Source: Prochlorococcus sp. AG-347-E23 (GTDB lineage Bacteria > Cyanobacteriota > Cyanobacteriia > PCC-6307 > Cyanobiaceae). From it: DNA of 64,000 nucleotides. Positions 14,786 to 49,221 of this stretch are shown here, one piece after another. Numbering within the stretch: the stretch's first letter is position 1; each line of letters opens with the position of its first letter. The stretch spans positions 1 to 64,000 of the forward strand of contig QCBH01000007.1 of NCBI GenBank assembly GCA_003281685.1. The letters are read 5' to 3'. A program made the translations under genes and the position numbers. The notes below the pieces were generated by a model. It searched no databases, was not told the DNA's origin, and saw nothing but the letters and a program-made list of their open reading frames with translations.

Positions 14786-14887
14786 CTAGCTTGTGTAAGC
14801 TTTCCCTCTGTAAGTTAGTTCATTGTGCTGCTTTTTAGCGGCTTCTTTGTTCTGGACGTACTTTTGTCCTCTGTAAATTAGAGTCAT
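14786..14887 (-). CDS. 33-residue peptide with DUF4278-like repeats
   Basis: It runs from ATG at 14887 to TAG at 14786-14788. The peptide contains two copies of the LxYRGxxY motif, LIYRGQKY near the start and LTYRGKAY near the end, which is the signature of DUF4278. A GGAG ribosome-binding site lies 6 bases before the ATG. The gene is flanked by a structured leader and a strong terminator, so the transcript would be about 245 bases. From memory, a Prochlorococcus transcript of this size and peptide length was described among the Yfr RNAs (Yfr6); I cannot verify the match here. Confidence 0.7.
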   Translation of the reverse strand: MTLIYRGQKYVQNKEAAKKQHNELTYRGKAYTS

Positions 14888-14987
14888 TTTTTTAGCTCCG
14901 GTTTCGCTTAAGTCCCCGTTCCATGGCTCAAGTCGATTTGCGGCTTGCTATACGCAAGTTGAACGCTTTGGTAGCGGTTGCTACAAA
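14888..14987 (-). ncRNA. Structured, GC-rich leader ahead of the 33-codon gene
   Basis: On the minus strand, downstream of a TATTAT-like -10, the leader has three successive hairpins: GTAGC-AACC-GCTAC, CTTGC-GTATA-GCAAG, and CTTGAG pairing with CTTAAG. The base composition is far more GC-rich than the surrounding spacer. This suggests a folded 5' UTR or a dual-function small RNA rather than an ordinary leader. Confidence 0.55.
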
Positions 14988-39564: not shown

Positions 39565-39749
39565 AGGTTACTGGGTCTTTGGTTAAGTTCTTCTTTATGT
39601 GCTCTGATCTGACTCTCTTTCGACATGAGGAGACTGTCGTGATGCGGTAGTAAACCGATCCTGCAATCGGAAACGAAAGCCCACTTTGAATCCTCTTCTG
39701 GCATTTCCAGGTCGATGCAGCAGAGAACTGACGGGGATCCGGTGTTACC
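39565..39749 (+). ncRNA. ssrS: 6S RNA
   Basis: This ~185-base non-coding region just downstream of purK is markedly more GC-rich than its surroundings and shows 6S architecture. The 5' segment (GGTTACTGGGTC) pairs imperfectly with the 3' segment (GATCCGGTGTTACC), and between them two long arms flank a large central bubble with hairpins such as CCGATCCTGCAATCGG. 6S RNA mimics an open promoter and sequesters RNA polymerase with sigma factor. The purK-6S linkage is established for Prochlorococcus. The ends are given to within a few bases. Confidence 0.85.
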
Positions 39750-46800: not shown

Positions 46801-46932
46801 TATCTTTACCTTTGTATTGAAGAGATTGATATCGTAAATTTATTAAAAAACTTTTAAATTTTTAACGAATTTCTTTCCTTGTTTAATTATTTTAGTTATC
46901 TTAGAGAAAACATTAGTAAAGGAGGTGATTCA

Positions 46933-47055
46933 TTGTCGTATCTACCGAAAAATGCGGTTATCAAAGGGACCGTGAATTCAGTATCTTCACCACATTCATT
47001 GGTCTCTTTTTCTTCAATTAAGAAAAAAGGTTTCATCATTAATAGATTTATATAA
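46933..47055 (+). CDS. 40-residue peptide gene with an exceptionally long Shine-Dalgarno
   Basis: AAAGGAGGTGATT immediately precedes a TTG start (46933), pairing over about 12 bases with the 16S 3' end. The peptide (SYLPKNAVIKGTVNSVSSPH, ending KKKGFIINRFI) is basic. Within the gene AAAGGGACC (46963-46971) can pair with GGTCTCTTT (47001-47009). A strong terminator follows 20 bases after the stop, giving an RNA of roughly 200 bases. Either a highly translated small protein or a dual-function RNA. I do not recognise the peptide. Confidence 0.5.
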   Translation: MSYLPKNAVIKGTVNSVSSPHSLVSFSSIKKKGFIINRFI

Positions 47056-47074
47056 ATCAATTACTTTTTAACAA

Positions 47075-47110
47075 AAAACTCTGCATCTCCTGTAGTTGCA
47101 GAGTTTTTTT
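47075..47110 (+). terminator. Rho-independent terminator
   Basis: AACTCTGCA (47077-47085) and TGCAGAGTT (47097-47105) form a perfect 9-base stem followed by a T-run. Confidence 0.92.
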
Positions 47111-47140: not shown

Positions 47141-47242
47141 CTATCTTTTTTGGCCAAAGTAAATTAAGGCTAAAAAAGATAGAGTGCTTACAAAAGCGAT
47201 TAAGTACCACCCAGTTGAGGAGTTGCTAGTCAATTCTGTCAT
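47141..47242 (-). CDS. 33-residue single-helix membrane peptide
   Basis: From ATG 47242: a polar start (MTELTSNSSTGW), a helix (YLIAFVSTLSFLALIYFG) and QKR at the end. It begins exactly where the preceding gene ends, and two further short membrane-protein genes lie upstream, suggesting a run of co-transcribed small genes. Confidence 0.5.
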   Translation of the reverse strand: MTELTSNSSTGWYLIAFVSTLSFLALIYFGQKR

Positions 47243-47332: not shown

Positions 47333-47587
47333 TTATAGAAAAATGCTAATTATCAAAAAGATTATTCCTAGAACTACTGTAACAATTGCTCCATCTACTA
47401 ATAAGTCTTTCCATGTATAGCTTTTAAGCATCCTTGTTTTATCTTCTTCACTCATAAGGTTCTTTAACCACCTCCAATCTAAAAGCTGTGTCAATGCAAC
47501 ACCAAAAATTAAATGACCAATCAAAATACCAATTAGATCAATTCTAGAAATATCTTTAGTAAGACTTGTAATAATTAAAAAGTCCAC
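47333..47587 (-). CDS. Small membrane protein, 84 residues
   Basis: Two hydrophobic segments, residues ~15-35 (DLIGILIGHLIFGVALTQLL) and ~66-84, with a charged middle (SEEDKTRMLKSYTWKDLL). It overlaps the preceding gene by one base. Unknown. Confidence 0.55.
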   Translation of the reverse strand: MDFLIITSLTKDISRIDLIGILIGHLIFGVALTQLLDWRWLKNLMSEEDKTRMLKSYTWKDLLVDGAIVTVVLGIIFLIISIFL

Positions 47588-47814
47588 TAGCCTTTTTCTT
47601 TATTAGATAAGGCACCACCTTCTTCCTTGTATTTTTCCCAAGCTTCACTTATTTTTGCTTTAGAGAAGTTTTGTTTCCCCTCAGATAATTTATTTTTGAG
47701 GTTATTTAAACTATTATTAAGTTCTTTTTTTGTTGGTTCATTAAGAAAGTTTGATGTTAATTTCCATAAATACCAGCTAGTAGCTAGAAGAAGAATTAAT
47801 CCCAGTAATTGCAT
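47587..47814 (-). CDS. Small membrane-anchored, Lys/Glu-rich protein
   Basis: It has 75 residues. An N-terminal helix (LLGLILLLATSWYLW) is followed by a charged helical tail (KELNNSLNNLKNKLSEGK). It is the first of a block of four abutting short genes on the minus strand. Unknown. Confidence 0.55.
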   Translation of the reverse strand: MQLLGLILLLATSWYLWKLTSNFLNEPTKKELNNSLNNLKNKLSEGKQNFSKAKISEAWEKYKEEGGALSNKEKG

Positions 47815-48748: not shown

Positions 48749-48880
48749 AAATTTAAAGATTGATCTAAAAAAAATGACATTTTCAATCTTACTGATCATC
48801 AAAAGAAAATGTGGCTATATTTTTTTAAAAAGAGAAAATATTTTATTTTGCACATACAAGATTTAATTTAATCAACATAT

Positions 48881-48920
48881 TGTGGAAAACCCTGTTGAAA
48901 AACACAAAAAAAGTGGATAA
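48881..48920 (-). other. Second cluster of DnaA-box-like sites
   Basis: Read on the minus strand: TTTTCCACA (48881-48889), identical to the first box at 7057, and TTATCCACT (48912-48920), one mismatch from the E. coli consensus. A weaker TTTTTCAAC lies between them at about 48894-48902. All are in the same orientation, within 40 bases, in a gene-free spacer. Binding is inferred. Confidence 0.4.
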
Positions 48921-49221
48921 CTCTCGGGGAGCATGATCAAAACAAGCTTTTCTGGAATAATTTTTAAGTATTAATACTTCATCAAGAAAAGTTTAAATAT
49001 AGTTTAAGATGCACCACAACCTATTGTCATAACTGTGGGATCATTACTTTTATATTTATAAAAAGGATTTTATCTAGAAACTAGTGTTGAGAAAAAATTA
49101 ATAAATTTATTTTTGAATGATGTATCAAATTGACAAATAAAGTTAAGAAAAATAAAAGGAAACTTGAATTTTTGAAAATTTGTCTCACCTGTTTAAATTA
49201 AGTCTTGATTCGGTTTTCTCT

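What the first reader, a model, noticed from the sequence alone, without database searches (positions are those of the whole stretch)
46920..47110. 40-codon gene with a near-full-length anti-Shine-Dalgarno match
AAAGGAGGTGATT pairs with about 12 bases of the 16S 3' end, far beyond normal for this genome, where many genes have no site at all. The RNA also has an internal AAAGGGACC/GGTCTCTTT pairing and a strong terminator. It could be a very highly translated peptide or an RNA that binds ribosomes.
Basis: seen in the sequence. Interest (0 to 1): 0.5.

Follow-up and report, generated by a model that had tools for sequence, protein, structure and literature searches.

The report
Structured micro-gene with giant ribosome-binding site
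Many ocean cyanobacteria carry one copy of a tiny undescribed gene whose RNA pairs unusually well with the ribosome and encodes a short peptide with a nearly unchanging tail; why its ribosome site is kept almost letter-perfect is unknown and testable.

Summary
The Shine-Dalgarno (SD) block AGGAGGTGATTCA (46920-46932) can pair with 13 consecutive bases of this genome's own 16S end (one G.U) just before a TTG start. It belongs to a single-copy family (120 of 400 family genomes, one each, none on the control pattern). Three layers of selection separate. (1) SD to codon 5 is fixed as nucleotides in the own genus, rare codons included, and nearly so elsewhere. (2) Codons 7-28 are almost free as protein (dN/dS 0.8-1.1) but hold a hairpin. 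(3) The tail ...KGFIINRFI-stop is protein-constrained (dN/dS 0.02-0.07). In other genera the stop codon lies in the loop of a covarying stem. The halves also occur apart: 5 of 132 collected loci lack the tail, and four genomes have it as a 26-codon gene. Best reading: a translated, structured micro-gene whose initiation site has its own role in ribosome docking or regulation. "Very highly translated" is not shown; in E. coli, SDs longer than six bases are less efficient. A ribosome-trapping RNA is not excluded. No Rfam, Pfam, NCBIfam or PHROGs family matched, and it is not Yfr6.

The parts
46893..46905 (+). probable -10 region and start of transcription (TAGTTATCTT...)
   Evidence: inferred from sequence and from upstream conservation in the alignment; not mapped
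46918..46947 (+). initiation block AAAGGAGGTGATTCATTGTCGTATCTACCG (SD, spacer, TTG start, codons 2-5)
   Evidence: identical in 43 of 43 same-genus loci found by whole-locus similarity; from GGAGG on identical in 72 of 72 own-genus-form loci collected by motif
46920..46932 (+). AGGAGGTGATTCA, 13 consecutive pairs (one G.U) with the 16S 3' end
46933..47055 (+). ORF, 40 codons, TTG start, TAA stop: LSYLPKNAVIKGTVNSVSSPHSLVSFSSIKKKGFIINRFI
46944..46958 (+). small hairpin ACCG...CGGT
   Evidence: 100% of cells paired in 43 aligned own-genus rows, nearly invariant
46965..47007 (+). internal hairpin (AAAGGGACC/GGTCTCTTT and extension)
   Evidence: 98.6% of cells paired, 6 of 12 pairs vary on one side, none on both
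47017..47052 (+). protein-constrained tail IKKKGFIINRFI
   Evidence: dN/dS 0.02 in own genus, 0.07 for the matching tail in the 33-codon form
47040..47063 (+). possible stem around the stop codon (own-genus form TAAT.GATTT/AAATC.ATTA)
   Evidence: own-genus form only tallied loosely; the equivalent stem in other genera shows covariation
47079..47110 (+). terminator CTCTGCA...TGCAGAG-T7

Best explanation
The locus is a stand-alone, structured micro-gene. An mRNA of roughly 200 nt starts just upstream of the SD and ends at its own terminator. A 30S subunit docks on it by pairing with the single-stranded 3' tail of 16S rRNA and starts at UUG. It makes a 40-residue peptide (33 residues in most loci of other genera) whose middle is a spacer and whose C-terminal 9-12 residues, ...KGFIINRFI, carry the function, most likely by binding a partner. 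The start block, the internal hairpin and the stem around the stop codon are RNA-level control elements. Together they make initiation slow or conditional rather than simply strong: a long SD, a weak start codon and structure around it. Shown: conservation, coding constraint on the tail, nucleotide constraint on the start block, covariation of the stop-codon stem in other genera, single copy. Inferred: transcript ends, translation, conditional initiation, and the peptide acting through a partner.
For: Open 40-codon frame without indels in 43 of 43 same-genus loci. Tail dN/dS 0.02 (64 distinct own-genus ORFs) and 0.07 (51 distinct 33-codon ORFs), against 1.14 and 0.76 in the middle. In 127 of 132 collected loci the TTG is in frame with the tail although the length varies (30, 32, 33, 35, 40 or 41 codons). 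Arg38 is kept where its codon changes from AGA to CGT or CGC (L190). In the own-genus form codons 2-5 are TCG, TAT, CTA, CCG in 72 of 72 loci, although TCG, CTA and CCG are 3%, 11% and 4% of the codons for their amino acids in long window ORFs. Synonymous difference in codons 2-6 is 0 there, against 0.39 in the tail of the same ORFs. The stop-codon stem in other genera has 95.8% of cells paired and 22 cells changed on both sides; 0 of 500 shuffles reach that count or the covariation score. The tail also stands alone as a 26-codon gene with a terminator-like end in 4 genomes.
Against: No expression, proteomic or ribosome data were available. Five of 132 collected loci keep the start block and first hairpin but lack the tail, so the block has a use beyond making this tail. 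In other genera the block is less fixed: codon 3 is CAT in 30 and TAT in 29 of 60, codon 5 is CCG in only 21 of 60, and dN/dS of codons 2-6 is 0.59. The hairpin that would cover the SD is no more stable than shuffles. The internal hairpin shows no two-sided changes in the own genus. The stem's two-sided changes fall almost all on one pair (21 of 22); two other measures are not beyond shuffles (88 and 118 of 500). The last two sense codons are also fixed as nucleotides (TTT 123 of 124, ATA 123 of 124), so part of the tail's conservation is RNA-level. Eight of 68 same-genus genomes lack the block, so it looks dispensable.
Confidence: 0.55

Rival explanations
1. Ribosome-docking or ribosome-trapping RNA: the complementarity to the 16S tail plus the UUG start hold 30S subunits. 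The RNA is the functional product, and the peptide is secondary or was added later.
For: The start block is kept in five orthologs without the tail (L260, L261, L268, L269, L285). In four of the five the first hairpin is followed by a T run like a terminator (folds). The block is nucleotide-fixed in the own genus. Other genera have C where the own genus has T, which makes the pairing fully Watson-Crick.
Against: 127 of 132 loci keep an in-frame tail that is protein-constrained, which a pure RNA would not need. Three of the five tail-less forms share LAPAF in the same frame (L260, L261, L268), although the hairpin arm encodes it. The TTG is at ordinary start spacing. One RNA species would have to be very abundant to titrate ribosomes, and abundance is unknown.
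Confidence: 0.2
2. Regulatory nascent chain: the ribosome pauses at the end of the ORF on ...FIINRFI-stop, and the pause regulates this RNA (decay or the stop-codon stem).
For: Only the C-terminal residues up to the stop are conserved as protein; the middle is a spacer of about tunnel-filling length; the last codons are fixed; the stop codon lies in the loop of a covarying stem in other genera.
Against: A terminator follows the ORF directly. The conserved neighbours downstream are on the other strand, and the plus strand there holds only short mechanical ORFs of 30-72 aa, so no regulated downstream gene is seen. The 26-codon stand-alone versions have different N-termini.
Confidence: 0.12
3. 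RNA switch: the SD and start are masked by local pairing (GGAGGUGAU with GUCGYAUCU, or in other genera CCAUUG with CAAUGG beside the first hairpin, forming a pseudoknot) and are released by temperature or a ligand.
For: Both pairings are kept in 59 other-genera rows: 99.2% of cells for the first and 97.5% for the second. Most variation in the first is wobble-compatible.
Against: Most pairs are invariant or vary on one side only, so there is no two-sided change to prove either. The folded start-block fragment is no better than shuffles (85 of 200 shuffles for the window, 16 of 200 for L218).
Confidence: 0.08
4. Type I toxin of a toxin-antitoxin pair with a structured mRNA.
For: Tiny peptide and a structured transcript.
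Against: The peptide is Lys- and Ser-rich rather than a single hydrophobic span. It is single copy, with shared flanking genes in the three own-genus loci compared. No viral or phage carriers were found; plasmids were not searched. Antisense transcription could not be tested.
Confidence: 0.03

Closest known systems
Yfr6 / glutamine-II 'downstream peptide' RNA of Prochlorococcus (PMC1242208, PMC2518516; passages read)
   Same: Short structured Prochlorococcus transcript with a possible 33-aa ORF, compared there with the dual RNA/peptide RNAIII
   Different: It is a different gene: the glutamine-II aptamer (RF01704) is at 14907-14968 minus in this window, and the ORF just downstream reads MTLIYRGQKYVQNKEAAKKQHNELTYRGKAYTS, with no BLASTP alignment to our peptide. 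That this is the Yfr6 locus is my inference from the neighbouring tRNA-Ser and the 33-aa ORF.
Dual-function RNAs (SgrS/SgrT, RNAIII/delta-hemolysin; as cited in PMC2518516)
   Same: RNA-level and peptide-level selection on one short transcript
   Different: No base-pairing target is known here. The most conserved RNA part is the start site itself.
Extended Shine-Dalgarno sites of Staphylococcus aureus (PMC13009471, passages read)
   Same: SD pairing extended towards the start codon; small unannotated ORFs; UUG starts
   Different: There it is common (a conservative estimate of about 30% of initiation sites in the passages). Here the exact 13-mer occurs once in the whole assembly.
Arrest-type leader peptides (TnaC, SecM, SpeFL; recalled, no call)
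   Same: Free middle, fixed C-terminal residues at or near the stop
   Different: No downstream gene on the same strand is apparent; a terminator follows directly

Membership tests
Yfr6 / glutamine-II riboswitch RNA | Glutamine-II aptamer (RF01704) upstream of the ORF | tested here: not met
   Rfam over the window finds RF01704 only at 14907-14968 minus; none of the 25 sub-threshold matches listed at the locus (best 23 bits) is RF01704
Yfr6 / glutamine-II riboswitch RNA | Same peptide family | tested here: not met
   BLASTP of the two peptides: no alignment with E up to 100
Small-protein gene | Conserved start, frame and protein-level purifying selection | tested here: met
   Tail dN/dS 0.02-0.07; frame kept in 43 of 43 own-genus loci; the N-terminal and middle parts do not meet it
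Small-protein gene | Peptide detected | not testable with these tools
   No proteomics or Ribo-seq available
Dual-function RNA | RNA structure or sequence selected independently of coding | tested here: met
   Rare codons fixed at codons 2-5 in the own genus; stop-codon stem covariation in other genera, mostly at one pair; start block kept after loss of the tail
Dual-function RNA | A trans-acting RNA function shown | not testable with these tools
   Needs experiments; apart from the rRNA operon no target was sought
Arrest / leader peptide | Controls a downstream gene on the same transcript | tested here: not met
   Terminator at 47079-47110; conserved downstream neighbours are on the minus strand
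Type I toxin-antitoxin | Overlapping or nearby antisense RNA and toxic hydrophobic peptide | tested here: inconclusive
   Peptide is not a hydrophobic span (sequence); antisense transcription and toxicity not testable

The most novel reading that the evidence does not exclude
A dual RNA in which the start site itself is the functional RNA: a transcript that docks 30S subunits by pairing with the whole single-stranded 16S tail at a weak UUG start, kept almost letter-perfect across Prochlorococcus-type genomes, fused in most lineages to a separately evolving peptide module (KGFIINRFI). It would link ribosome availability to a peptide signal in a cell with few protein regulators.
Probability: 0.2. 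Interest if true: 0.85.

Novelty: new variant of a known kind. Interest (0 to 1): 0.55.

Why it matters
Prochlorococcus is among the most abundant photosynthetic cells and has few protein regulators. A single-copy gene with a start site held at nucleotide level, a covarying stem around its stop codon and a fixed peptide tail is a clean test case for whether an over-long SD acts as a regulatory ribosome dock rather than a strength dial. The natural splits of the two halves allow each to be tested alone.

Tried and rejected
Antisense to 16S helix 45: codons 2-5 can also pair, with many G.U, with the helix-45 strand (-38 to -42 kcal/mol). Shuffles of that part do as well in 138, 27 and 44 of 5000 for the three element versions, random AT-rich letters in 14, 8 and 12 of 5000, so the fit is better than random but not striking. 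A synonymous change that would improve the pairing (TAT to TAC) is seen in 0 of 132 loci. Set aside as a likely side effect.

Known families: nothing at the locus above Rfam thresholds, nor in ten ortholog stretches; no Pfam (40-aa form only), NCBIfam or PHROGs match for the peptides tested; no PDB match for the 26-aa form. Viral and phage carriers: none. A first idea from memory (the ATP-synthase regulator AtpTheta) was only put to a literature listing and dropped without reading those papers.

RNAalifold on the other-genera alignment gave only a weak structure (-4.5 kcal/mol, 0 two-sided pairs); on the own-genus one -19.5 kcal/mol, also 0 two-sided pairs. In other genera the internal hairpin is only 79% paired, so it is good mainly in the own genus and in the tail-less forms.

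Same-genus genomes without the block: 8 of 68. The neighbouring gene (47587-47814) was found in 0 of those 8 and in 10 of 10 genomes with the block, so the loss looks regional.

Full report
WHAT IS THERE. The window is Prochlorococcus-like: of the 80 named loci kept from a search of the genome collection with the peptide (147 hits), 76 are titled Prochlorococcus and 4 uncultured Synechococcaceae, and the window holds Yfr17, 6S RNA and the glutamine-II RNA. At 46918-46947 lies AAAGGAGGTGATTCATTGTCGTATCTACCG, the start of a 40-codon ORF (46933-47055) that begins with TTG. The genome's own 16S ends in GGATCACCTCCTAAC, so AGGAGGTGATTCA pairs over 13 consecutive positions, one of them G.U. The 13-mer AAGGAGGTGATTC is unique in the assembly, and near matches are at chance level. 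A terminator follows the stop codon, and the conserved neighbours downstream lie on the other strand.

HOW WIDESPREAD. A peptide search of 99 relatives found an unbroken 40-codon frame in 43 of 61 genus genomes, many of them incomplete, and in 0 of 38 outside; DNA similarity found 47 of 99, a few of these partial or very short. A profile of the peptide then found short ORFs in other genera that share mainly the end, KGFIINRFI (loose threshold). I fetched 37 such places in other genera; 33 showed an ORF with the tail in a first script. Of these 33, 29 carry GG(A/G)GGTGATCCATTGT just upstream, with a TTG start and 32-33 codons; 4 do not. A pattern for the tail hits 98 of 400 family genomes and a pattern for the start block hits 120 of 400. 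Each is single copy, with no hit for the control pattern, in 14 of 59 genera each. In the own genus the block is present in 60 of 68 genomes. Other genera have GATCC where the own genus has GATTC, making the pairing fully Watson-Crick. Genome and clade names were not available for these, so ecotype labels in my notes (HL, LL) are shorthand.

THREE LAYERS OF SELECTION. In 64 distinct 40-codon ORFs, codons 2-6 show pN 0.006 and pS 0; codons 7-28 show dN/dS 1.14; codons 29-40 show dN/dS 0.02 with pS 0.39. In 51 distinct 33-codon ORFs the corresponding regions give 0.59, 0.76 and 0.07. So the tail is selected as protein, the middle hardly at all, and the start block, at least in the own genus, as nucleotides. 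In 72 own-genus-form loci codons 2-5 are always TCG TAT CTA CCG, although TCG, CTA and CCG are 3%, 11% and 4% of the codons for their amino acids in long window ORFs. In 60 loci of the other form, TCG is kept in 57 and CTA in 56, but codon 3 is CAT (30) or TAT (29) and codon 5 mostly CCA (32) or CCG (21). Invariance inside the collecting motif is by construction, but 43 of 43 loci found without it are identical over all 30 bases from AAAGG to CCG; a more distant own-genus locus (L190) differs in the bases just before GGAGG.

RNA STRUCTURE. Changes are on one side only and shuffles do as well (267 of 500), so it is consistent rather than proven. Several of these changes alter the amino acid (Gly/Glu 12, Thr/Ala 13) while keeping the pair. 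In other genera the corresponding hairpin is weaker (79%). The best structural signal is a stem in other genera that joins the last codons to the 3' side and leaves TTTATATAG, holding the last two codons and the stop, largely in the loop. It has 10 pairs, 95.8% of cells paired and 22 cells changed on both sides; 0 of 500 shuffles reach that count or the covariation score, and slid versions are far lower. Against it, 21 of the 22 double changes are in one pair (A-U 28, G-C 21), the number of doubly changed pairs and of pair types is reached by 88 and 118 of 500 shuffles, and shuffles ignore relatedness. A comparable own-genus stem was only tallied loosely. Pairings that would hide the SD are conserved but nearly invariant and not unusually stable.

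TWO MODULES. In five of 132 loci (L260, L261, L268, L269, L285) the start block and first hairpin remain, but the frame ends without KGFIINRFI; in four of the five a T run follows the hairpin (folds). Among 35 loci compared by tblastx, flanking genes are shared with tail-bearing loci for L260 (with L205), L285 (with the window), L268 (with L194 and L262) and L269 (with L194), suggesting loss in place; L261 showed no link. Four genomes carry the tail as a separate 26-codon gene, ML...S...LL...KGFIINRFI, with an ATG and a terminator-like end, without the block beside it. One genome (G124) has both halves about 32 kb apart. In a wider search of 291 genomes of the class no further stand-alone version came up at E below 0.01; five genomes outside the family gave E 0.011-0.036.

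WHAT IT PROBABLY DOES. A small peptide with a functional C-terminus is made from a start site that is itself selected. I do not think the long SD simply means high output: in E. coli six bases beat longer SDs (PMC2176067, abstract), while in S. aureus extended pairing serves start selection (PMC13009471, passages). A weak UUG start with near-maximal 16S pairing fits controlled or slow initiation. A ribosome-trapping RNA stays possible because the block outlives the peptide tail.

WHAT IS KNOWN. It is not Yfr6, the published Prochlorococcus RNA with a 33-aa ORF (PMC1242208, PMC2518516, passages); the matching aptamer and a different peptide lie at about 14.8-15.0 kb of this window. It is not in the table of ncRNAs Yfr8-Yfr21 of PMC2518516 as far as I can infer from coordinates (passages; MED4 itself was not examined). 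That paper reports 113 new ORFs whose supplementary tables I could not read, so the ORF may be listed there. Full-text searches for FIINRFI and for guessed nearby MED4 tags found no paper. The other searches listed none that describes it in the titles and abstract beginnings shown.

Noticed in passing
window 14786-14968 minus: Glutamine-II riboswitch (RF01704, 14907-14968) followed by a 33-codon ORF MTLIYRGQKYVQNKEAAKKQHNELTYRGKAYTS (14786-14887): probably the locus equivalent to Yfr6 of MED4.
   Followed up: partly
window 48779-49037 plus; 39565-39749 plus: Rfam matches to Yfr17 sRNA and 6S RNA (Yfr7 of MED4), in the same order as the MED4 coordinates given in the two Yfr papers.
   Followed up: no
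window 47141-47242 minus: 33-aa ORF with one likely membrane span (MTELTSNSSTGWYLIAFVSTLSFLALIYFGQKR) convergent with the micro-gene; no NCBIfam match.
   Followed up: no
G275, G452, G463, G023, G466, G470, G475, G002: Eight same-genus genomes of 95-99% completeness lack both the micro-gene block and the neighbouring gene 47587-47814, suggesting a regional loss or replacement.
   Followed up: partly
L191, L192, L193, L196: 26-codon ORFs ending in KGFIINRFI with TTGAC-type promoter-like sequence upstream and a terminator-like end: an independent gene for the peptide tail.
   Followed up: partly
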